64,000 bases of DNA, from positions 1 through 64,000 of IMG/VR virus record IMGVR_UViG_3300034175_000063; one strand, given 5' to 3'. Each line of letters begins with the position of its first letter. Within the stretch, counting starts at the first letter, position 1. The notes under the pieces are model-generated. The model saw nothing but the letters and a program-made list of their open reading frames with translations. It was not told the origin of the DNA and ran no database searches. Shown in pieces: positions 7,745-55,797 of the stretch. A program made the position numbers and the translations under genes. This DNA comes from a virus.

Positions 7745-8113
7745 ATGACAACCGATGACACCCTCGACTTCGATGTGAATGACCTTCATGTCGACACCTT
7801 CCGCGCGCCGGGTCAGGGAGGCTGGTCCACGAAACCGGAAACCGTGGTGCGTATCACCCACATGCCTTCGCGCTTCTCGATAACCGAGGGCGACGATCGC
7901 AGCCAGCACCGCAACAAGGTAGAAGCCCTCCGCAAACTTCGTATCATCAAGGCATTCTGCCCTGAAGTTTTTGAATCCCCACCACCCCCCAAGTTCCCTG
8001 ATCACGCGGCCCTCCGCAAAGCATGGGACGACTACCGTGGCGACGCCGAGCTGACGCTTGACGATGCCTTCATCTTCGCTGCTGGCTACATTGCCGGCGC
8101 CTCTAACAAATAG
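7745..8113 (+). CDS. Class I release-factor-domain protein lacking the GGQ glutamine
   Basis: A 122-residue protein. Residues 14-65 match the catalytic domain of peptide chain release factors (RF1/ArfB type): the strand before the loop, then PETVVRITHMPS (31-42), then the signature DDRSQHRNKVEALRKL (50-65). In working factors the loop reads GGQ and hydrolyses peptidyl-tRNA in the ribosome. Here the loop is GQGGWSTK (23-30), with Trp27 where Gln is expected and one residue fewer after it. So it probably binds ribosomes or a rescue site without normal hydrolysis; that is inference. The C-terminal 57 residues are unlike RF tails. The start is set by a near-overlap with the previous gene. Confidence 0.72.
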   Translation: MTTDDTLDFDVNDLHVDTFRAPGQGGWSTKPETVVRITHMPSRFSITEGDDRSQHRNKVEALRKLRIIKAFCPEVFESPPPPKFPDHAALRKAWDDYRGDAELTLDDAFIFAAGYIAGASNK

Positions 8114-22331: not shown

Positions 22332-22846
22332 TGCGCCCCCATGCAGGTTTTGTAACGAGCCTGCTGGCGCTCCCATACGCCCCAGCATCGTTGATTGGGT
22401 CGACCGTTCACCAAGGTGGAACAGTCGTACCCGCCTGAGAACTTATATGCCAACAGCGCCCCGCAAGCGCCTGCATAGTCGGCCCGCAGGAGCTTGGTCC
22501 GCATGGACGAGCCCGACCAGGCGCCCGTGCCGTATTGGTAGACCCAATCCATGTAGGTGTCGTACTCGACCTGACTGAGCTGCACACCAGGCATCGAGTT
22601 GCGGAAGATGACTTCTTCCTTGGTGATGTGCACCTGGGCGACGCGCAGCGCGCGCACTGGGGTGACCTTCTGACCCATCTGGACCGGCTTGCCGTCTTCC
22701 CAGAAGGTAGAACCGTAGCCAACCGTTGGCCGGTCGTTCTTGGTGGGGATCACAGCACTGTCGGTGAAGCCTTCATGCGACACCAGGCCGATAAAGGCCA
22801 TGGCACTGAGCATGAGGCCGGCGACGGCCATACGTGGTTTACTCAT
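22328..22846 (-). CDS. GH24 lysozyme with N-terminal SAR-type anchor
   Basis: A 172-residue endolysin that cleaves the glycan strands of peptidoglycan. The ATG at 22846 follows AGAGGAG. Residues 6-22 form a weakly hydrophobic Ala/Gly/Met-rich segment typical of signal-anchor-release endolysins, so it can be exported by Sec and released when the membrane is depolarised. The catalytic region is E25 in SHEGF, with T41 in PTVGYGS. A VIPTKND stretch between them matches phage muraminidases I recall from podoviruses. It overlaps holin by 8 bases and Rz by 4. Confidence 0.9.
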   Translation of the reverse strand: MSKPRMAVAGLMLSAMAFIGLVSHEGFTDSAVIPTKNDRPTVGYGSTFWEDGKPVQMGQKVTPVRALRVAQVHITKEEVIFRNSMPGVQLSQVEYDTYMDWVYQYGTGAWSGSSMRTKLLRADYAGACGALLAYKFSGGYDCSTLVNGRPNQRCWGVWERQQARYKTCMGAQ

Positions 22847-44384: not shown

Positions 44385-44561
44385 ATGAATGTCCTCAAGT
44401 GGTTTGGCTGCGTCATTGCAGCCATCCTCTTGGTGGCAATCGTGATTGGCGTATATGCGTTCATCCACATCATCATCGCGGTCGTGACCGTGGTGTTCCT
44501 GGTGTGGATGGCTGCCATCGGCATTCGCGCTTACTTCAAGAGCCGACCGCGTAAAATGTAA
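44385..44561 (+). CDS. Small membrane protein
   Basis: A 58-residue protein 6 bases after the previous stop. Two hydrophobic helices (about residues 9-29 and 31-48) are joined by a short HII turn; the C-terminus is basic (FKSRPRKM). It could be an inner-membrane peptide that acts as an antiholin, an exclusion factor or an envelope modifier. No ribosome binding site is strong; translation may be coupled to the preceding gene. Confidence 0.62.
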   Translation: MNVLKWFGCVIAAILLVAIVIGVYAFIHIIIAVVTVVFLVWMAAIGIRAYFKSRPRKM

Positions 44562-44565
44562 TTCG

Positions 44566-45310
44566 CTGCCCACCACCCAGATAGGCTGGGGGCAGATTCA
44601 ACAGGATGGGGCACATCTACCTTCAAAAGACCGAAGGGCACGGGCGGGAACCCATTGTGGCGTGCTCCACCCTGTTGATGCAGGTCTTGTTAGTCGGCTG
44701 GACGACAATCCGTCCGTGAGTTCTTGTAACCTGGTGTGAAGCCGGGGAACAGCCACTTCACCTACGAGGTTCTGATCTGAAACGCTTGTGACCCCTGATA
44801 CGGGCATGGTTTAGCGCATCCATAAAACAGAGCATCAACACGTTAAGCAGCCCCGCGTCAGTGGGCAGCACCAACACCCGAGCGCCGGGACGGAGTAGGC
44901 CAGGAAATTTGTGGCCGAAACGTAGTCCCGCTACCTGTAGTCAAGGCAGGTCGCTCCGGTGTTGGAGATGGTGTAAGGCGCAAGCTGGCTGCGATGAAAG
45001 ACCTGGGCTATTCCCCAGCGTGAAATAAGCACGTCCAGAGGACCGGGTTCGATTCCCGGTATTCAACTAGAGGTATGCGGTTCGAGTCCGCTCGCTGGCC
45101 GAGATTAGGTAAATGCCATAGGGGTTCGAGTCCCCTTGCCCGGTAGCTTTATGCTTTACGGGACACGGGTGGGAGGCGGCTTGTAGTAGAATCACCGAGC
45201 AGCGGACAAGTCCAGTCCATCGTGAGGGTAGGCCAGCTGGCATCCCAAGCAATAGCGTAAACAAGACCGTGGGGAGGGTGCAACATAGTTCCACGTTAAG
45301 CTACAGTGCA
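44566..45310 (+). ncRNA. Putative giant structured RNA
   Basis: About 745 bases between convergent genes with no credible ORF on either strand but dense folding. Seen directly: a nested hairpin at 44566-44595; a 16-bp stem (one mismatch, one wobble) pairing 44599-44614 with 44662-44677 and enclosing a further hairpin (44620-44637); CAGGT/ACCTG (44681-44685 with 44729-44733) enclosing GGACG/CGTCC (44700-44715); GTGAAG/CTTCAC (44736-44761); CGGGAC/GTCCCG (44886-44930); ACCTG/CAGGT (44933-44951); CTCC/GGAG (44954-44967). Three T-arm-like hairpins lie at 45043-45136, and a terminator follows. The strand is inferred from the upstream operon. It resembles the GOLLD and ROOL phage RNAs in size and setting, but identity is unproven. 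Confidence 0.72.
45043..45136 (+). other. Three tRNA T-arm-like hairpins
   Basis: Hairpin 1 (45043-45059) is CCGGG, loop TTCGATT, CCCGG. Hairpin 2 (45077-45091) is GCGG, loop TTCGAGT, CCGC. Hairpin 3 (45120-45136) is AGGGG, loop TTCGAGT, CCCCT. Each has the 7-base T-loop of tRNA. The gaps of 17 and 28 bases are too short for whole tRNAs, and no normal D-arm, anticodon arm or CCA end was found. They are probably part of the structured RNA or relics of tRNA genes. Confidence 0.65.
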
Positions 45311-45315
45311 TCATT

Positions 45316-45353
45316 AAAGCCCCGGTCCTCCTCACAGAGTCCGGGGCTTTTCT
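45316..45353. terminator. Bidirectional Rho-independent terminator
   Basis: AAAGCCCCGG (45316-45325) pairs with CCGGGGCTTT (45341-45350) around a 15-base loop. T-rich runs flank it on both strands, so it ends the rightward RNA and the leftward vRNAP gene, whose stop is at 45356. Confidence 0.9.
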
Positions 45354-45355
45354 CA

Positions 45356-48300
45356 TTACTGCCCGTTGTACACCGCCGTGGTGAATGGTCCGGTCAGCAG
45401 GCCCACCGTGGTCACCGAATCCAACGAGCCGAAGTAGCTCAGCGCGCCGGCGTTAAACGGATTGCCGAAGTGGTGGATGAAGCTCGAGTCCATCACCGTC
45501 GGCTGGTCCCCCAACATGTGCTCGGCCGCCATCAAGGCGAGTACCCGGCCAGGCGAGTCCTTATAAATACGTGCAAGCACCTTCTGGATGCGAACATAGT
45601 ATTTCGAGAACATGATCAACCCCGTGTCATTAGCGTACTGGATTTTCCGGTGCGTCGGGACGTCGTAGTTGATGAACGCTTCGGAAGCGCGCTGCACAGC
45701 TTGCTCATGGGTCATCGACTTGACGTCATGCTGGTACAGCGTGTACCGGGCCAGGAAGTCACTGATCTGCGTTGCGTAGCTCATCATCTTGTATGGCGCC
45801 GTGCTGTGGTGCATGGTGAGCAGCTGCACGCCTTTCAGGATGTGTGGGTTCACACCTTCGATGAAGCCGTCGACCTTTTCGTCGAACCGCGACTTGTACG
45901 AGTAGATGTCCTCATCGACGCCCACATCCTCAACGATGGTCGGCATCAGGCCGGCGTCGATCAGCGGACGGATCGGGTTGCGGGCCAGGCTGTCTTCCAA
46001 GCGTTGGATCAGGTAGGCGGCTTTGCTCGCATTCATGCCAGGTTCAAAGTGACCGATCGTCTGCTGGTGCTTCAAGGCGAACAGCTTGGCATTGTCCTGC
46101 TTGTATTCCCAGGCCGACTTGAACGCCACACGATGGCTGTCGAAGATCTGCTTCGGCGACACGCCCATCAAGAAAAGCTGCGACCAGTTCGACCGCAGGT
46201 TGCCCGTCATGGTCGACCACGATTTGACCACCAGGTTGGCCTTCGTCTCCTTGACGATCGCCTGCCAGATGTCTTCGGACTGGCGAGCACGCAGCTGGGC
46301 CTTGTCCTTGAAGGCATAGCTCATGATCTCGACGAACATGTTTTCGACGAAGCTGCGCTGTGCCTTTTCCTTTTCAAACACCGTGCCGATGCTGAGCTTG
46401 CGATAGCCGAAGTTCATGTCGAGGATGTCGTTGCGGACCAGCATGCCATCCTTGCCGAACAGGCTCTTGGCCAGCTGCTGGGTATCCCGCGGCAGCATGT
46501 CCCAGATTTCACGCAGCTGCGGATCAGCCGACGTCGGGCCGACCTGCAGATAGGCTTCCGGATGATCGGCAAAGTCCAGCTTGTACTGTTCGTGCAGAGC
46601 CTTGATGGCGTTGGCGTTCTGCACTTTCGACGCTACCTTGTCGAACGTGTTGCCGGCCATCGAGCCCAGCAGGTGATCGGTACGGTTGTCCCGGTTCAGC
46701 AGCTTGTCCTTGACGACGTTGCTCATCATGTAGCGGTAGTTGGTCACGTCACCGTTCGGGTTTAGCACTGGTGCCATGTGGGCTTCCTTGACCGCTGTTG
46801 GATCGAAGCCAGTACCAGTGAACATGCTTTGAATGGCCGGACGCTTACCGATCCGGATCGCTGCCATGTTCATCGCGTTCTGCTGGCCAGCCACCGATAC
46901 AGGGTGAGCACCGGTGATGACCTGGCTACCCTTGGCTTTGGAATCGGTCGTGCTGATGATGCCCGAGTTCCATTGTTTCAGGCCGCCGTCACGCAGCGAG
47001 TAGATCCGCTTTTGGTCAGATACCGGGTCCGCTGCGTCGCGCGGCAGGTAGCCGGGCATTGCCGTGTAACCTTTCTTGACCAGCTCGATACCCTCATCAT
47101 CGGTGGCCATCACCACCGTCATGTAGGGATCGTAAATCTCCGGGACGTAGCCTTTCATCTGCAGGGCTTCACTGTCCGAGAACAACTTGTCCTTGCTCTC
47201 GGCCTGCAATGCCGTGTGGGTCTTCATGATCATCTCGATGCCATGGCCACCGTCGGTGCGTGCTGCTTCAGCGGCAAACACCTCGGACAACATCTTCATG
47301 TCGACCCGGCTGGCGTACTTCAGCGCGTAGAGCGAAGCCAGACGATCAATGATCGGGGCGGCAGCCAGAGCCTGGGCCGGCGTGACACTCATGCCCGTGC
47401 CATACAGGCGGGCGATGTTCCCGGCGTTCATCAGCTGGTGGGCCGTGGCCACGCGGCTGGTGGCCATGAAGTAGCCCAGCCCTTTCGCCGAGTTGATGTA
47501 GAACCGGTTCATCTTGCCACCGGCAACGAGCTGAGCTTCATGCGAGTCGATCTCCGTCTGCAGGTCACTCGTGCTGTTGACCAGGTTCTGCAGCTGGGCC
47601 ACCGTGTAGGTGCCGAGCAGGGACTGCATGTCACCACGCAGGACCACCGCGGTGAGTGCTTTCTTCTGGTCGTCGGTCAGATCCTCACCTGCATTGACGA
47701 AGGATCCCGATACCGCTTTCGAGATGTTCGAGATGGTGTCCTTGCGGATACCCTCCAAGTGCTTGGTGCCACGCAGCAGGAAGTGGTAGACCTTGTTCAT
47801 GTCGGTTGCACCGCGTACTTCGTTCATCAGCGATGCTGCAACGCCGAGCTGGCCGGTCATCGTCTTGTCGCGCAAGCGAAGGTAGGCATCCATGATGGCG
47901 TCGACGCGATCGCCGGCAACCGCCGACATGACATTGCCACCCAGCTTCACGAAGGCGTTACCGCTGTTCTGGAAGAAGGGCTTCTTGCCGAAGGCTTCCA
48001 CCGCCGCGCGCACCGAGTCGCTCATGTCTTCGGCCGTGTCGGCGATGCGGTTCAGCGTCTGCGAGGCGCCGGACGTGATCCGGTTGTGACGCTTGGCTTC
48101 GATCTCGACCATCTGCTTGACCAGGGCGTTCAGCTTCTTGTCAGCCATCTGGCCGCGGAAGGTCTTCGTCAGGCGGCCGGCCACCCAGCTCATGATCGTG
48201 TTGAAGATCTTGTTGAGCCGTTCGTTGAAACCCATGCTTGGATTGTTCGTGGCGCCGGTGGCAGTGTGAAACTGCAGTTGCTCGCGGAAGCCAGAATGCA

Positions 48301-51300
48301 CCAGGCCCAGGGCGGCAAAGCGGCTCATGTAATCGGACTTGCCGGTGGCATCCTGCTTGATGGCGAAGACGAAATCGTAGAGTGCCTTGGCCTGATCCTT
48401 TTCGATCTGGGTGGCCGTGGTCCAGTCGCCCTTGTGGAAGGATTCGACCGTCAGCTTGGCCCGGACCTCGTTGTAGAGGCGGGTCATTTCCTTGTAGGCG
48501 ACCGTCATCACACCGTCGTTGTGCGACAGTGCAGTGCGCATCGTGGCTTCTACCTGCTCCAGGACGAAAGCTTCCTGATCGGTGAAACCGAAACCAGCAG
48601 CCAGAGACTCGGATGCGAACGGGGCCACGCCGGTGCTCAGTGCATCAGCGTAGACATCCAGCGGATCCTGTGCGGTCTGCTCCATGAGAGCGGCCTTGAA
48701 GGAACCGAAGGGACCATACACCGACTTCACCAGCGTTGACAACAGCCCTTGCAGGTGCGTGCTGTGTTCAGCCGAGATCTGGGCGCCGTTGTTCGACTGG
48801 GCCAGCGCAGCGTAGATGTCCAGGGTCGACAGGTCACGCACGTTTGCGGCGCCAGGCGTCGAGATGGCCAGGGTTACCGGGCCGGCTGCTGCCGGTTTGT
48901 TTTGCTGCGCTGCCTGCTCGAACAAGCCAGACACATTCGACAAGAACGTGGTCATACCGCTGCTCATTGCAGCGTTGGGACGACCGAAGAACAGAGCTGT
49001 AATCTTGTCGATAAATGCGGCCATTGCCGTGATCAGGCGGTTGCCACCGGTCTTCGACGTGTAGCTGATGGCGGCCATTACATCGTTCTGGAACTCAGCG
49101 TTGGTCATGCCGTAGGCAATGAACTCGTCCAGGTTCTCAAAGACACGGGAGTAATACGCGATGCGGTCTGGCGACTCGCTGCTGGCCACGTATTGCTTGG
49201 CCATTTCCATCAACGCTTCGAGCTCTTCGACCAGCTTCAGTGCATCACTGGTATAGGGCTTGGCCGGCTTCTCTCCTTCGTTGTTAATGATCTCACCATC
49301 GCGGATCGCCTGCTCAGCGCGCGTCGTCTGCACCAATGCAGCGTGCACCATCTCGTGCAGCAGTACCTCGTTGTCGAGGCCCGAGTACACAAAGTCGTCG
49401 GACATCACGTAGATGGCTTGGTTTTCAATGCCGTCAGCTACGTTTATATACATGCCGCGGGCATTCTGGCTGATCTCGTGGTGGATCAGGTCAGCCGGTA
49501 CGGTGTCCTTGGTGATGTATTTCACCACCATGTTGCCGGCGACAGTGCGCTCCAGCTGTGACAGCAGCTTCATGCTAAAGTCGTCCTTCATGGTCTTGCG
49601 CAGCAGGGCCACCACTTCCTTGACGGTTTGATTCGGCTTGGCCTTAAATGCTGCGGTTAGCTTAGGATCATAACGGCCGAGAGGCTTGCCCAGTTGAGCA
49701 ACTGGGTTGGCGTTCACCGGCTTGGTTTCCATCTCCGGGTCGGCTTTCGCTGCTCCCTTTTTCTCTTTGGCCGGGCGGCTGGCCATCTCAGCCTTGATCG
49801 CTGCTTCCAGCTTATCTGACACCGAGGTGAGGGCCGAGCGGTCGACGTCTGAAACACCGACCTCAAGCGCCGAGCGCAGCGAGGCCGCCGAGGAACGGTG
49901 GGAAGACTCGACAGCGAAGGCACCACCCTCCATCGCATATTGATTCACCGCCGTCATGGTCGACATCGTGTCCAGCTTCATGCTGTCGGCACGATAGGCC
50001 ATGCTCTGGGCCAGCTCAGCCTGCAGGTACAGCACGCCTTCAGGTGGGACATCGTGCTTCTCAGCGAAGGTCACCAGCGACTTGGCCAGCTTGGCCATGG
50101 TCGCATCCGATACCTTGCCGGCCGCCAGCATAGCATTCAGTCCACGCACCGTGCGCAGCAGAGCGTTCTTCACCTCGTTCGCCGGCGAGTAGTTCAGCAT
50201 GGTGTCCCAGGTCGCTTCGTTCATGCGACGTGCTGTCTCAACGATGCCGCCGACACCGTGACCCTGTGCATCGTGGATGTTGAGGGCTTGGCCATCGACG
50301 TTCGCACGCACCGAGATAGCCGAGTCGGCCGAGTGCATCGACACTGGGACCATGGCCACACCTGGGCCGGCTGGCGTTGTCTCATAGCCGTGCACCTGGG
50401 TGCTCTTGCTACCATCTTCAAATGGCTGGCCGAACTTCACCACATTCTGGTAGGTGTCCTTGTCCGAGAGCTTGCGCTCGGCTTTGGCCACCATGATGCC
50501 TGCCTCCAGGTCTTTCGATTCTTGGGACATCGGCGTGTTCATCACCGGCAGCAGGGCGGCCGTCTGCTTGCGCAGTTCAACTTCCTGAGCGTTGGTGAGA
50601 TCGTGGATCGGCACACCGGTCTTCGGATTCACTGCCATCTTGCCGTCGGCGACCAGCTGCGTGATCATCTCTTCGCGCATGCCCTGGTACACAGCGTTGT
50701 AGACTTCAAACGTCAGCTGTGCTGTCTTGTTGAACTCGGTACGTTGGGCGATGAAGACCTCGAAGTCCTGCTTCATGGTTTCTTCCACGGCCACGCCGAG
50801 CGAGTCCTTGAAGGCGCCCTTGAGTGTCTTGATCTGCTGGCTGGTGAACTCGTGTTCCATCAGGTCGATGTTGGTCGGCAGCCGCACACCCATCACCTCC
50901 AGGTGCAGCAGGATTTCGCCTGGTGTCATCTCGCCTTCTTCAATCGCCGTGTAGATCGAGTCGACGAAGTTGTCGGCCATCGAGTCCACTGCGTTGTTCA
51001 CCGACGAACCGAAGACCATCGCGGTCAGCGGGGTCTTGATGATGTTCCGGCCTGCCTTTTGCACGACGCCTTTGCTGTCGGCCAGCTCGCCAGTGAAGGC
51101 GTAGATCGAAGCCATGAGCTCAGGATCCAGGTTGGCAGCATTGATCGCCTGCGTCATGTGCAGGGCCGTGTTCTCGTACAGATCGAAGTTCTCCGGCGCG
51201 TCGCGCCAGGTGTTGTATTCGATATGGTCGTTGCCTTGCTCGAAGAAGCCACCGCGGTTCAGTAGGGCGTACATCTCCTTGACCGTGTTGGCCGCGCCCA

Positions 51301-54300
51301 GCAGCAGATGCGACAGCATCGGGCCGTTGGTCACACCGTCCACCTCGGCCATCATCTGCGTGGTGAACTCGGTGGCGCCGGCCTTCTTGGCCACTGTCAT
51401 CTGGGCCATGGCCATCAGCGCATCAAGCGAGTGCATGTCCTCACCACCAGCCTTCACGCCGGCCACCAGCACTGCCTGATCGTTCTCGGACAGCACACCG
51501 CTTTCGGTGCCGGTCAGCGACTTAACGAGCACGGCCACGGCTGCTTTGATCTCTGGCTTGGCGACCAGCTTGTTGAAGTCGGCGAGGGCTTTTTCCTTGC
51601 TCTTCTTGTCGGTCTTGACGCCCAGTCCTTCTGCAACGCGCAGCTTGAAATTCGTCATGGCTGCGGTATCGCCGAAGGCAATCTTCGTTTCCCAGGCCGA
51701 ACGGTACAGCATGTGACGGTGGATCTTGCTGGTCTGTGGATTGATCATGTTCGTGGCGATACCGACACGCTGCTGCATCCAGACAGAGTGTTCAAAGTAC
51801 ATGGCCGCGTCACTACCGACTTCACCGACGTAGTTCATGAACCGCTCGAGCTCGCGTGCCAGGCCATCATTCTTGGCCTGCAGGGACTTGCGGCGGCTCT
51901 TGTGCACGACCTTGTTCGGGTCTTCCTGACCTGCGATCTGCAGCATGGTGTCCGGGGACACCTGGCCGGCCAGGTTGAACATGTCGGCCCGGACATAGCT
52001 CGCCTCGGCGTCATCACGACGCACCTGCTCAGCCAGCTCCGAAGGGATGGCCATGCTGGTGTTGCGGGTGGTCTTCTGCTTCGATTCCACCGGTGACGAC
52101 GACGGCGCCTTCAGTGCCGGCTCCACGCCGAACAGCTTGTCGAGGATCCCGTTCGTTCCCTTGTTGGCTTGGAAAATCGCTTCGGCCTGCTCACCGAGTT
52201 TGCCATCGGCACGGGCCAGCTTCAGGAAGTAGAACTTCGCATTGGTCTGGGTTTTGTCGCTCTTCGTCAGTTCAGCCATTTCCTGGCCGGTGATCGTGTT
52301 GCGGGTCAGGATACCCTGGTCCAGCAGCAGCTTCATGGCATGGGCACCGATCGACGCTTCCAGATCGGCCTGCAGGTTACGCGGAGCGGAAGCCAAGGAT
52401 TTAAGACCAAGGGCCGCAACAATCCGCTGGCCGAGTGCATTGGCCACGATGTTCTGACGTACGCCGATGTGCTCCAGTGCGTTGTATTCAAGCGTCGACA
52501 CCGGTGCAGATTCATCCCGACCGAGGATGGCATTGATGTCTTCCTTGGTGTTGAGCTCCGGACGTGTGGCCGCTTCAGCGACCCAGCTAAATGCACCGTA
52601 GGCGATTGCCGTCATGGTGTTCTCATCGAGCTTGCCGTCGGCGTTCATCAGGAACTGGATCGGGTCTTCAAAACCGTAGCCGGGATTGCCCTTCCGCAGG
52701 TTGGCCGTGATGTTACCGGCCCATGCCGTGGCCGTGGCCAGGAAGGTTTTCAGTACCAGCTTTTGCTCATCGCTTGGGGCTTCCTTCGACGACAGGAATT
52801 CCGACAGCTTGAAGCCTTCGGCCTTGTTCTTCCATGCCGAGAGGAAGTCGACCAGCTTAGCCAGCGGACGCTGGGTGCCGGTGTCTTCATTGCCGGCCGA
52901 CTGGACGAAGTGTGCCCCGACCAGGTTCTGTTCCTGGTATGGCAGCGAGGTGTCATGTGCGACGTCGAAGACGGTGAGCGTGGTGGTCTTTTCCTTGACC
53001 TCCTGGGTCGCCGCAGCTTCAGGCGTGGCCGTCTCTGCAGCGGGCGCTGGGTTCGCTTCGCTCACCGCTGGCTGCTCGACTGCTGCCGCCTTCGCTGCTG
53101 CTTCCCGTGCCTCACGTTGGGCTTTGGATTTGGCCAGGTTGTCAGCGACACGCTGGTCCTTGTCGTTGCCGGCCAGGACGTTTTTCTTCGGCTCGGCCGA
53201 TGCCTCATTATTTGCATCTGGTGCAGATTTCTTGCGTGACTCGATCACGTAGCCCGACTTGTCGGCTTTGCGTGTGGCCTTCAGGCTCTCACCCAGGAAG
53301 TTGTCGTATAGATACTTCTCCGCTTCCAGCGACGTGGCGAATTCCTTGCCGACGTGGACGACTTTTTCTTTCTTCTCAGACTTAGGGGGAGCTTCAGCGG
53401 TGGGGAGTTCAGCTGGTACAGCTGGACGTGCGGTGTCCTCCTCAATTTCTGGGGTACTGATATTACCGGAGGGTACATTGTCTTGCTTGGAGGATTCGGA
53501 TTGTACGCCAAATTTCAAAGATGTGGCGGAATTCATTTCGGTATGGGTGGCACGCAACGCTTTCGCCTCGTTGGCGATCTCGTTGACCAGGCGCCCGGAG
53601 TTCAGGGCCAGGCCGCCGTTGGCACGGAGATCCTTTTCCTTGAAGGTGCCAGGCGGGTGGGATTCCCATTTCTTGTCCGTCTTGTTGTAGACGATCTGGG
53701 CGCCCATACCGTAGTCGGCCATGGCCTCGCGGGCGGTGGCTGCCTTGTCTTCGTGGTTGATGGCGAACGTCTCCAGCCCGGTCATGGCACGGTCGGCCGA
53801 CACCTGGCTGTTCGAGGCGATCGCTGCTGCGATGCGCGAGCGGTATTGCGAGATGCCGACGTTCTTGGCAGAGCCAAACAACACCTCTTGCGACACCTTC
53901 GACTGGGTAGACAGGGCGTTCTCGGCCTGACGAGCATCGCTGAACACGCGAAGATGCGCACGCTGCGAATCCGTCAGCGAGTTGGTGGTGTCATCAGCCA
54001 GCTGCAACGCTGCTGTGTGGGACAGAGCATCCGGCTGCGACATCGACAGGTTCACCAGTCGGGTAGCAGCGGTGTTGTCGGCCGCTGCTGCGGTGACCAG
54101 CGTGCCTACTTCTTCCGGCGTGGCCACTGCCTCATTGGCGTTGACCAGTCCACCCATGAAGTTGCGGCCGGCTGAGAGCTGGCGATCCAGAGCGGACAGC
54201 ACAGCACGCGACTTGCTCGCTGCCTGGGTGTCGGTGGCGTCAGCCAGCACATCCTTCCAGCCGTCGCGGAAGTCCTGCAGTTCGGCGATCTTGACCGCAT

Positions 54301-55726
54301 CGGTAGTCTTGGCGATCTCCGTCTCGTAGAAGCTGACCTTGGCTTTCGCCTCGGCGACGCTGGCCGGCGAGAAAGTATCGGCATCGTTCTGTGCCTTGGC
54401 ATGCTGTTCTTCGATCTGGGACAGCAGCTCGCCGGCGCGCTTCAGGTTCTCGGCTTTGATTTCCGGGGTCGTTTCCGGACGCATGGCGTGGGCAACCAGC
54501 ACACCCATGCCGCGGGAGAGGTCGTAGTCACGGCTCTTCGGATCCACGAAGCTGGTAATGTCGTTGCTGGCCACTGCAGCAGCGACCCGTTGACGAGTCT
54601 CAGCAGTGGTCACACGCTCTTGAGTTTCCTTGGCCACGGTGTTCGCGCTCTTGTGCAGCGAACCCATGCCGACGCCCATGGCAGTACCTGCCACCAGGCC
54701 GGCGCCTGCGGCATTGCCGACGCCCTTCATGTAATCTTCCTCGCCCATGGCGATGTTCGTGAAGAACTGCTCCTGTGCCGACTGCGGGAGCTCTTCGGTC
54801 ACGCCTTCAGAGAAGCCTTCCTTCCCGATCTTGGCCAGCTTCGAGCCCTTCAGCGTACGTGCACCGGTGGCGATGTCGGTTGCTGCATCACCGAACACTT
54901 TGTTCGAGACAGCACCGATGGCGGCGGTGGTAGCACCAGCGGCCAAGGCCGGCAGAGCATAGTCCTCGTATTCACGGCCAGCGGCCTGTGCCTTATCAGC
55001 GACCGTACCAGCTGCTTGAGCACCTTCAACACCTGCACCAATGGCCGACAGGCGGAAACCAGCAGCCTCAATAGCTGCCTTTGCAGCGGCGCCACCGGCT
55101 TCAGTGCTCAGGGCAGCCGTTTCGGCCATGCCTACACGGCCGGCTGCGATCGCAGCTTCACTGGCCAGACGTCCTTCGACGGTTGCCATGGCGGCCTTGG
55201 CCGCGATACCACGCGCGGCAGCACCGGCCACACCCATACCGGCCAGCATGGCAGGCAGGGATTCGGTCACGGTGCCCAGGATCGAGCGAGGATTGGCCAG
55301 CGAGGTCAGCACGGTGTCGCTGAAGCCTTCGGCTTCGGCTACCTTCTGATCGGAAGCTTTCTGTGCAGCACTCAGGTGTTCACCCAACGCTTCGTTGGTG
55401 GCAGCTGGATCGTAGCCGATGGCACGCATACCCTCGCCGACGGCACCACCAGTGGCCAAACTACCCAGGCCAACCACCGAAGCACCCAGGTTCACCACAC
55501 CTTGACCCAGCTTGATGCCGACGTCACCGACCGTACCCACCAGGTCAGTTTGACGAACTTCCGGGTTGGCGTTACGCAGCATCCGCTCTTTGAGCGAAGT
55601 CTGGTACACCGAGTCCAGTGCAGCCATCTTGGTCTGACGGGCAGCAGTAATCTCGGCCATCTTCTGGTCGAGCAGTTCTTCGCTGGCTTTAGGCGCAGAT
55701 GGGCTGGTGTAGACTGGATTGGTCAT
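45356..55726 (-). CDS. Virion-encapsulated RNA polymerase (vRNAP), N4 gp50-like
   Basis: A protein of 3456 residues, close to N4 vRNAP (about 3500). It is packed in the head and ejected to transcribe early genes. The central third shows single-subunit RNA polymerase motifs: a T/DxxGR-like element SKIHR (R1337), motif A EVDGVTNGP (D1463), motif B R1560-NII-K1564 with F1572-G1573, and motif C H1818-D1819-A-Q. Their spacing (126, 101, 255) is close to N4 (about 135, 111, 281). Motif B has Phe where N4 and T7 have Tyr. Past the core is a zinc-peptidase-like HEMVH (2124-2128). The N-terminus is Ala/Gly-rich. The ATG at 55726 follows AGGAA. Confidence 0.9.
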   Translation of the reverse strand: MTNPVYTSPSAPKASEELLDQKMAEITAARQTKMAALDSVYQTSLKERMLRNANPEVRQTDLVGTVGDVGIKLGQGVVNLGASVVGLGSLATGGAVGEGMRAIGYDPAATNEALGEHLSAAQKASDQKVAEAEGFSDTVLTSLANPRSILGTVTESLPAMLAGMGVAGAAARGIAAKAAMATVEGRLASEAAIAAGRVGMAETAALSTEAGGAAAKAAIEAAGFRLSAIGAGVEGAQAAGTVADKAQAAGREYEDYALPALAAGATTAAIGAVSNKVFGDAATDIATGARTLKGSKLAKIGKEGFSEGVTEELPQSAQEQFFTNIAMGEEDYMKGVGNAAGAGLVAGTAMGVGMGSLHKSANTVAKETQERVTTAETRQRVAAAVASNDITSFVDPKSRDYDLSRGMGVLVAHAMRPETTPEIKAENLKRAGELLSQIEEQHAKAQNDADTFSPASVAEAKAKVSFYETEIAKTTDAVKIAELQDFRDGWKDVLADATDTQAASKSRAVLSALDRQLSAGRNFMGGLVNANEAVATPEEVGTLVTAAAADNTAATRLVNLSMSQPDALSHTAALQLADDTTNSLTDSQRAHLRVFSDARQAENALSTQSKVSQEVLFGSAKNVGISQYRSRIAAAIASNSQVSADRAMTGLETFAINHEDKAATAREAMADYGMGAQIVYNKTDKKWESHPPGTFKEKDLRANGGLALNSGRLVNEIANEAKALRATHTEMNSATSLKFGVQSESSKQDNVPSGNISTPEIEEDTARPAVPAELPTAEAPPKSEKKEKVVHVGKEFATSLEAEKYLYDNFLGESLKATRKADKSGYVIESRKKSAPDANNEASAEPKKNVLAGNDKDQRVADNLAKSKAQREAREAAAKAAAVEQPAVSEANPAPAAETATPEAAATQEVKEKTTTLTVFDVAHDTSLPYQEQNLVGAHFVQSAGNEDTGTQRPLAKLVDFLSAWKNKAEGFKLSEFLSSKEAPSDEQKLVLKTFLATATAWAGNITANLRKGNPGYGFEDPIQFLMNADGKLDENTMTAIAYGAFSWVAEAATRPELNTKEDINAILGRDESAPVSTLEYNALEHIGVRQNIVANALGQRIVAALGLKSLASAPRNLQADLEASIGAHAMKLLLDQGILTRNTITGQEMAELTKSDKTQTNAKFYFLKLARADGKLGEQAEAIFQANKGTNGILDKLFGVEPALKAPSSSPVESKQKTTRNTSMAIPSELAEQVRRDDAEASYVRADMFNLAGQVSPDTMLQIAGQEDPNKVVHKSRRKSLQAKNDGLARELERFMNYVGEVGSDAAMYFEHSVWMQQRVGIATNMINPQTSKIHRHMLYRSAWETKIAFGDTAAMTNFKLRVAEGLGVKTDKKSKEKALADFNKLVAKPEIKAAVAVLVKSLTGTESGVLSENDQAVLVAGVKAGGEDMHSLDALMAMAQMTVAKKAGATEFTTQMMAEVDGVTNGPMLSHLLLGAANTVKEMYALLNRGGFFEQGNDHIEYNTWRDAPENFDLYENTALHMTQAINAANLDPELMASIYAFTGELADSKGVVQKAGRNIIKTPLTAMVFGSSVNNAVDSMADNFVDSIYTAIEEGEMTPGEILLHLEVMGVRLPTNIDLMEHEFTSQQIKTLKGAFKDSLGVAVEETMKQDFEVFIAQRTEFNKTAQLTFEVYNAVYQGMREEMITQLVADGKMAVNPKTGVPIHDLTNAQEVELRKQTAALLPVMNTPMSQESKDLEAGIMVAKAERKLSDKDTYQNVVKFGQPFEDGSKSTQVHGYETTPAGPGVAMVPVSMHSADSAISVRANVDGQALNIHDAQGHGVGGIVETARRMNEATWDTMLNYSPANEVKNALLRTVRGLNAMLAAGKVSDATMAKLAKSLVTFAEKHDVPPEGVLYLQAELAQSMAYRADSMKLDTMSTMTAVNQYAMEGGAFAVESSHRSSAASLRSALEVGVSDVDRSALTSVSDKLEAAIKAEMASRPAKEKKGAAKADPEMETKPVNANPVAQLGKPLGRYDPKLTAAFKAKPNQTVKEVVALLRKTMKDDFSMKLLSQLERTVAGNMVVKYITKDTVPADLIHHEISQNARGMYINVADGIENQAIYVMSDDFVYSGLDNEVLLHEMVHAALVQTTRAEQAIRDGEIINNEGEKPAKPYTSDALKLVEELEALMEMAKQYVASSESPDRIAYYSRVFENLDEFIAYGMTNAEFQNDVMAAISYTSKTGGNRLITAMAAFIDKITALFFGRPNAAMSSGMTTFLSNVSGLFEQAAQQNKPAAAGPVTLAISTPGAANVRDLSTLDIYAALAQSNNGAQISAEHSTHLQGLLSTLVKSVYGPFGSFKAALMEQTAQDPLDVYADALSTGVAPFASESLAAGFGFTDQEAFVLEQVEATMRTALSHNDGVMTVAYKEMTRLYNEVRAKLTVESFHKGDWTTATQIEKDQAKALYDFVFAIKQDATGKSDYMSRFAALGLVHSGFREQLQFHTATGATNNPSMGFNERLNKIFNTIMSWVAGRLTKTFRGQMADKKLNALVKQMVEIEAKRHNRITSGASQTLNRIADTAEDMSDSVRAAVEAFGKKPFFQNSGNAFVKLGGNVMSAVAGDRVDAIMDAYLRLRDKTMTGQLGVAASLMNEVRGATDMNKVYHFLLRGTKHLEGIRKDTISNISKAVSGSFVNAGEDLTDDQKKALTAVVLRGDMQSLLGTYTVAQLQNLVNSTSDLQTEIDSHEAQLVAGGKMNRFYINSAKGLGYFMATSRVATAHQLMNAGNIARLYGTGMSVTPAQALAAAPIIDRLASLYALKYASRVDMKMLSEVFAAEAARTDGGHGIEMIMKTHTALQAESKDKLFSDSEALQMKGYVPEIYDPYMTVVMATDDEGIELVKKGYTAMPGYLPRDAADPVSDQKRIYSLRDGGLKQWNSGIISTTDSKAKGSQVITGAHPVSVAGQQNAMNMAAIRIGKRPAIQSMFTGTGFDPTAVKEAHMAPVLNPNGDVTNYRYMMSNVVKDKLLNRDNRTDHLLGSMAGNTFDKVASKVQNANAIKALHEQYKLDFADHPEAYLQVGPTSADPQLREIWDMLPRDTQQLAKSLFGKDGMLVRNDILDMNFGYRKLSIGTVFEKEKAQRSFVENMFVEIMSYAFKDKAQLRARQSEDIWQAIVKETKANLVVKSWSTMTGNLRSNWSQLFLMGVSPKQIFDSHRVAFKSAWEYKQDNAKLFALKHQQTIGHFEPGMNASKAAYLIQRLEDSLARNPIRPLIDAGLMPTIVEDVGVDEDIYSYKSRFDEKVDGFIEGVNPHILKGVQLLTMHHSTAPYKMMSYATQISDFLARYTLYQHDVKSMTHEQAVQRASEAFINYDVPTHRKIQYANDTGLIMFSKYYVRIQKVLARIYKDSPGRVLALMAAEHMLGDQPTVMDSSFIHHFGNPFNAGALSYFGSLDSVTTVGLLTGPFTTAVYNGQ

Positions 55727-55756
55727 GGTATTCCTGGTTGATTCGGGTGAGAGCCC

Positions 55757-55797
55757 ATTATATACAAGTTGCACTGGGTCAAGTAGTCTTGACCCAG
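55757..55797 (-). promoter_or_regulatory. Promoter-like boxes and perfect palindrome before vRNAP
   Basis: Leftward, a perfect TATAAT (complement of 55757-55762) stands 14 bases after TTGACC (complement of 55777-55782). The TTGACC sits in a perfect 10-bp inverted repeat CTGGGTCAAG-TAGT-CTTGACCCAG (55774-55797). The palindrome may be an operator overlapping a -35, or the terminator of the gene upstream; the T-tract is poor. The 14-base spacer is short for sigma-70. Confidence 0.5.

What the first reader, a model, noticed from the sequence alone, without database searches (positions are those of the whole stretch)
44566..45310. A 745-base, densely folded non-coding stretch: candidate giant phage RNA
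No credible gene occupies it, yet it holds at least nine helices, including a 16-bp long-range stem (44599-44614 with 44662-44677), and ends in a strong terminator. Size, phage setting, tRNA-like elements and convergent flanking genes recall the GOLLD and ROOL RNAs. I cannot say whether it belongs to either family or is new.
Basis: partly seen in the sequence, partly recalled or inferred. Interest (0 to 1): 0.85.

Follow-up and report, generated by a model that had tools for sequence, protein, structure and literature searches.

The report
Modular tRNA-mimicking RNA in a phage
A stretch of a bacterial virus genome that looks empty of genes appears to encode a large structured RNA built from interchangeable parts, one of them a tRNA look-alike conserved in otherwise unrelated phages and absent from the public RNA family catalogue.

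Summary
The stretch is non-coding and, by comparative evidence, an RNA locus, though no transcript was tested. Folding energy is not the proof: 200-nt pieces fold only slightly better than control pieces of the window. The proof is a ~119-nt element at 45065-45183 (+), "module B": a tRNA-type T-arm, UCGYU, a covarying helix (GRYC/GRYC), a near-invariant D-loop-like core GAGAYUWGGUARA, and a second T-arm. B recurs in about 20 distinct sequences from phages of ~50 to >400 kb and in one of 84,980 bacterial species genomes. A covariance model built without the window finds it at 70 bits, E=8e-18; the helices show many double changes. A 5' hairpin, "module A" (44566-44595), recurs in 12 more phage sequences, often next to tRNA genes. 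A 3' domain (45195-45263) is shared with the nearest relative. Modules occur in different combinations and orders. In related Littlefixvirus phages the same place holds a tRNA gene and odd tRNA-like bodies.

It is not GOLLD, ROOL or any Rfam family. Most likely it is a modular RNA grown in a phage tRNA-array site that imitates the tRNA elbow to engage tRNA-binding factors; the target is unknown.

The parts
44566..44595 (+). Module A: 5' hairpin CUGCCC-ACCA-CCCAG-AUAGG-CUGGG-GGCAG, 4 nt after the stop codon of the 58-aa gene
   Evidence: Same motif with changing outer stem in L005, L040 and ten further phage loci
44599..44614 (+). 5' strand of long-range stem S1
   Evidence: Pairs with 44662-44677, 15 of 16 positions; L005 folds into the same topology with other bases
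44662..44677 (+). 3' strand of long-range stem S1
45042..45060 (+). Extra T-arm-like hairpin ACCGGG-UUCGAUU-CCCGGU, not part of module B
   Evidence: Sequence; partial model match at 45037-45058, 14.8 bits
45065..45183 (+). Module B: the conserved T-arm / D-loop-like core / T-arm element
   Evidence: R2 model built without the window: 70.4 bits, E=8e-18
45077..45091 (+). T-arm 1 of module B (GCGG-UUCGAGU-CCGC)
   Evidence: Stem covaries across the family: 4 of 5 pairs with double changes
45097..45100 (+). 5' strand of helix P (GGCC)
   Evidence: 100% paired, 3 of 4 pairs with double changes in the 14-member alignment; also found by RNAalifold unaided
45101..45113 (+). Near-invariant core GAGAUUAGGUAAA (family GAGAYUWGGUARA), resembles a tRNA D-loop
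45120..45136 (+). T-arm 2 of module B (AGGGG-UUCGAGU-CCCCU)
45139..45162 (+). Variable hairpin inside module B
   Evidence: Folding; inference
45178..45181 (+). 3' strand of helix P (GGCU; 3 Watson-Crick pairs and one G.U)
   Evidence: Assigned by model R2
45195..45263 (+). Module C: conserved 3' domain
   Evidence: 78% over 69 nt with L005, E=3e-13; 2 compensatory pairs
45316..45351 (+). Intrinsic terminator AAAGCCCCGG...CCGGGGCUUUU
   Evidence: Sequence and fold

Best explanation
The 44566-45351 stretch (+ strand) encodes a roughly 0.75-kb structured RNA at the 3' end of a rightward gene cluster of an N4-like (Schitoviridae-type) phage. It sits in a place that holds a tRNA gene and tRNA-like bodies in related phages. 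Shown by computation: it is mosaic. Module A, module B and module C each recur in other phages, in other combinations and orders, and A, the T-arms and helix P of B keep their pairing while the bases change. Inferred: the RNA is transcribed with the upstream genes and ends at the terminator; the T-loop UUCRANY of B docks with the GG of GAGAYUWGGUARA as G18/G19 dock with T-loop residues in tRNA, making a tRNA elbow without an anticodon; host tRNA-handling enzymes (RNase P or Z, T-loop modifiers) may process and modify it; its job is to occupy a tRNA-elbow-binding factor during infection. The target could be a host tRNA enzyme, the ribosome or a tRNA-cutting defence nuclease, and remains open.
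For: Module B: independent BLAST matches in Rosemountvirus, Loughboroughvirus and Xylophilus phage Lumi; pattern hits in phages of ~50 to >400 kb with near-constant spacing. The held-out model finds the window at 70 bits, and unused members at 39-68 bits, while real tRNAs stay at or below about 17. Covariation: T-arm 1 and helix P 100% paired with double changes in 7 of 9 pairs, slid controls far lower. Near-absent from bacterial genomes: 1 of 84,980. tRNA-array setting: B directly follows a tRNA in L012, L017 and L029; A lies next to tRNA genes in L058, L059, L061, L063, L064/L066 and L065; Littlefixvirus carries tRNA-Arg plus tRNA bodies with odd anticodon arms in the same place. Elbow geometry (A58-G18-G57-G19-C56 stack) and its recognition by RNase P, RNase Z, ribosome and modifying enzymes: PMC4810234. 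A tRNA-like RNA domain as competitive inhibitor of an anticodon nuclease has been suggested for YrlA (PMC7790460).
Against: No transcript, modification or binding data. L005, the nearest relative, has A and C but no B (best score 9.6 bits), so B is not needed for the locus. In isolation B's unconstrained fold is 2-5 kcal/mol better than folds with the T-arms and P imposed. In the window P is short and includes a G.U pair. The D-loop/T-loop contact is inferred from sequence only.
Confidence: 0.45

Rival explanations
1. It is a decayed tRNA array: pseudo-tRNA fragments left over after tRNA loss, without function.
For: T-arms are the best-preserved piece of tRNAs; the orthologous place in Littlefixvirus holds a tRNA; no intact tRNA is left here.
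Against: Decay would not conserve the non-tRNA core GAGAYUWGGUARA, the spacing and the covarying helix P across unrelated phages, nor a 22-nt stretch of module A identical in two unrelated phages.
Confidence: 0.1
2. It is a GOLLD/ROOL-like scaffold: an unrelated-in-sequence giant RNA that self-assembles into a multimer, with T-arm/D-loop contacts acting between molecules.
For: Similar size, phage origin and tRNA-island setting; GOLLD and ROOL form RNA-only nanocages of unknown function (PMC12286853).
Against: No Rfam match; modules are shuffled and some stand alone between tRNAs (L029, L065), which does not suit a fixed assembly.
Confidence: 0.15
3. The modules are cis-acting processing or stability signals: T-arm hairpins recruit tRNA-processing enzymes to cut a polycistronic transcript and protect its 3' end.
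For: A and B often abut tRNA genes in arrays; the RNA directly follows an ORF in the window and in L005.
Against: Does not explain the conserved core and helix P, or why whole 500-850 nt non-coding stretches persist without tRNAs (window, L040, Rosemountvirus).
Confidence: 0.2
4. B recognises tRNA rather than imitating it: two T-loops form an interdigitated tRNA-elbow-binding surface as in RNase P, T-boxes and the L1 stalk.
For: Two T-loops close together in every member; such motifs bind tRNA elbows in three unrelated RNAs (PMC4810234).
Against: B's T-arms look like true tRNA T-arms (4-5 bp, 7-nt UUCRANY loops, each on its own stem), whereas the known recognisers use interdigitated pentanucleotide T-loops.
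Confidence: 0.1

Closest known systems
GOLLD and ROOL RNAs
   Same: Large structured phage RNAs often near tRNA islands; [quoted passage not shown]
   Different: No covariance-model match; T-arms and the GAGAYUWGGUARA module define this one; module order varies
Phage T4 species 1 and 2 RNAs (rnaC, rnaD)
   Same: Stable phage RNAs in a tRNA cluster; rnaC carries a T-arm
   Different: R1 sees only the single T-arm of rnaC (12 bits); no core or second T-arm
YrlA (bacterial Y RNA) tRNA-like domain
   Same: Non-coding RNA with a tRNA-like domain; suggested competitor for a tRNA-binding enzyme (PMC7790460)
   Different: No Rfam match; B is phage-borne and has two T-arms; a Ro/Rsr-binding stem was not looked for in detail
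tmRNA
   Same: tRNA-like domain whose D-loop lacks a normal D-stem (general knowledge)
   Different: No ARAGORN or Rfam tmRNA match

Membership tests
GOLLD | Match to the Rfam covariance model | tested here: not met
   No hit at gathering score nor at E<=10
GOLLD | Self-assembly into an RNA nanocage | not testable with these tools
   Needs cryo-EM or native gels
ROOL | Match to the Rfam covariance model | tested here: not met
tRNA | Complete cloverleaf with anticodon | tested here: not met
   ARAGORN: 0 in the window; no Rfam tRNA hit
tmRNA | tRNA-like domain plus tag reading frame | tested here: not met
YrlA | Match to an Rfam Y-RNA family | tested here: not met
   No Y-RNA family reported or 97
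T4 species 1 RNA (rnaC) | Shares module B | tested here: not met
   T4 record: only single T-arms or partial matches, about 14 bits or less
Module B family (defined here) | T-arm 1, core GAGAYUWGGUARA, T-arm 2, helix P in that order | tested here: met
   Held-out model R2, 70.4 bits over positions 1-115 of 115
Module A family (defined here) | CCAC-NNN-CCAG-AUAGG(N)-CUGG hairpin with covarying outer stem | tested here: met
   13 loci; outer pairs 3-5 paired in 13, 10 and 12 of 13 with 3-4 pair types

The most novel reading that the evidence does not exclude
Phages carry an unrecognised, exchangeable kit of anticodon-less tRNA-mimic RNA modules (A, B, C and others), strung into long RNAs or between tRNA genes, that act in trans as decoys for tRNA-binding host factors such as tRNA-cutting defence nucleases; this locus is a tRNA-free example.
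Probability: 0.25. Interest if true: 0.9.

Novelty: new variant of a known kind. Interest (0 to 1): 0.72.

Why it matters
It adds a covariation-supported, nearly phage-exclusive RNA element to the small set of large phage RNAs without known function, and ties them to tRNA mimicry. Members occur in isolated phages (Rosemountvirus and Loughboroughvirus of Salmonella and E. coli, Xylophilus phage Lumi), so the role of structured RNAs in phage tRNA arrays becomes directly testable. It also shows that stretches annotated as empty or as tiny hypothetical proteins in more than 50 sequenced phages contain this RNA element.

Tried and rejected
Rfam at gathering score and at relaxed E-values for the window and for module B of L021: chance hits only. 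A coding explanation. Folding energy as proof: rejected after controls. T4 rnaC/rnaD as members: rejected. sigma-70 promoter in front of the RNA: none found; phage-polymerase promoters are not covered by that scan. Plasmid homologues: none. Strict pattern for module C in viral contigs: only L005, so C rests on two sequences. A taxon-wide model search of bacterial genomes could not be started. Literature searches for tRNA-mimic phage RNAs, T-loop RNAs and tRNA-array RNAs found no description of this element; most subscription journals are not covered. Pattern hits L018, L020, L023/L037 and L039, and L045-L051, lie outside the family and were discarded.

Full report
OBSERVATION. The stretch lies between the 58-aa ORF 44385-44561 (+) and the virion RNA polymerase gene 45356-55774 (-; PHROG 'virion RNA polymerase', E=1e-218) in a 77,648-base virus record. 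It has no credible protein, no ARAGORN tRNA or tmRNA and no Rfam family. The claimed long stem exists, with 15 of 16 positions paired. A terminator follows at 45316-45351. Energy alone is not convincing: 200-nt pieces average z -1.05 (+) and -0.95 (-) against -0.74 for 70 control pieces of the same window.

RELATED SEQUENCES. BLAST of the region found a 43-nt match at 91-93% in Rosemountvirus phages, and a shorter query added Loughboroughvirus SA173 and Xylophilus phage Lumi. All hold a T-arm, CGCTGRCCGAGAYTWGGTARA and, except where the second loop is altered, a second T-arm. Degenerate-pattern scans of IMG/VR found the element in about 20 distinct sequences from phages of ~50 to >400 kb; relaxing the pattern added almost no true members. 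Only one of 84,980 bacterial and archaeal species genomes had it.

MODULE B. T-arm 1 (4-5 bp, loop UUCRANY), UCGYU, helix P (5' strand), the core GAGAYUWGGUARA, 1-12 nt, T-arm 2, one or two variable hairpins, helix P (3' strand). In 22 members P is paired in 88 of 88 cells; shuffles reached at most 81, with the caveat that P's 3' strand was chosen for complementarity. In the 14-member MAFFT alignment, T-arm 1 and P are 100% paired, with double changes in 4 of 5 and 3 of 4 pairs; slid controls of the whole structure fall from 89% to 28-55% paired. RNAalifold found T-arm 1 and P unaided. Ten members add a covarying hairpin with loop GAAAGA right after P. Model R2, built without the window, hits 45065-45183 at 70.4 bits (E=8e-18), and the unused L030, L011, L010, L015, L007, L002 and L012 at 40-68 bits; tRNA genes score about 17 or less.

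MODULES A AND C AND THEIR SHUFFLING. A (44566-44595) is at the 5' end here and in L005, but at the 3' end of the 850-nt non-coding stretch of L040, a 49-kb contig. A pattern scan found it in eleven more contigs, either next to tRNA genes or just before a terminator. Its outer stem varies with pairing kept. C (45195-45263) is shared only with L005. L005, the nearest relative by the flanking 198-aa protein (45% identity), has A and C but lacks B; between them it has the GAAAGA hairpin and a tRNA-like module that L040 also has. Window, L005 and L040 thus share modules pairwise, in different order. In Rosemountvirus and its kin a long hairpin lies 5' of B in L002 but 3' of B in L010.

SETTING. In jumbo and other phages B directly follows a tRNA gene (L012, L017, L029). 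In Littlefixvirus the space after the virion RNA polymerase gene holds tRNA-Arg(UCU) and further tRNA bodies whose anticodon arm is short or replaced by a long structured insert (L008, L070); Luzseptimavirus and phCDa have only about 15 nt there. The place is therefore a tRNA-array site that has been emptied, filled or remodelled.

MECHANISM. Shown: conserved, covarying, T-arm-bearing RNA modules in a mosaic locus. From established knowledge (PMC4810234): in tRNA, G18 and G19 of the D-loop interlock with T-loop residues, and the exposed G19-C56 pair is the handle used by RNase P, RNase Z, modification enzymes and the ribosome. Inferred: the AG-AYUW-GG-U-A core is the D-loop counterpart and T-arm 1 (whose loop is the better conserved) its partner, so B presents an elbow without an anticodon; the long RNA strings such handles together. 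The most economical function is to occupy a tRNA-binding factor. [quoted passage not shown]

COMPARISON. It works most like a tRNA mimic and is organised most like the large phage RNAs GOLLD and ROOL (PMC12286853), but fails their covariance-model test. T4 species 1 RNA is the closest historical analogue, a stable RNA with a T-arm in a tRNA cluster, but lacks module B.

LIMITS. No expression data. Module C rests on two sequences. In the window, P contains a G.U pair, and an unconstrained fold of B alone is 2-5 kcal/mol lower. The docking and the function are inferences.

Noticed in passing
L070 4185-4300 (-) and L008 5160-5380 (-): Littlefixvirus phages carry tRNA bodies (acceptor, D-arm, T-arm) whose anticodon arm is replaced by a short or long structured insert; ARAGORN misses them. 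They look like anticodon-less tRNA mimics.
   Followed up: partly
L053 1501-1573, L054 1501-1577, L055 1501-1572, L056 1450-1530; L040 7726-7799 (-); L005 about 7990-8085: Another tRNA-like module (acceptor GGUGGUG/CACCACC, T-arm GCCGG-UUGCGAC-CCGGC, no usable anticodon) shared by Achromobacter Steinhofvirus, Variovorax phage VAC_51, L040 and L005.
   Followed up: partly
L040, L057, L060, L061: A long hairpin module CACACGCAUGGCGAUU...AGUCGCCAGCCGUGUGG recurs in arrays with module A and tRNAs.
   Followed up: partly
L002 2399-2524 and 2744-2890; L003 2372-2524 and 2687-2791: Tiny 'hypothetical proteins' annotated inside the Rosemountvirus RNA region (fHyEco03_gp58/gp59 and KE25 counterparts) are probably mis-annotations of the RNA.
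   Followed up: no
record behind L012 (G002), 22462-22538: A jumbo phage has a second, diverged module B (32 bits).
   Followed up: no
L043 4981-5015 (-): The single bacterial-genome hit for module B is on a Sphingopyxis metagenome-assembled contig; whether it is a prophage or a binned phage was not checked.
   Followed up: no
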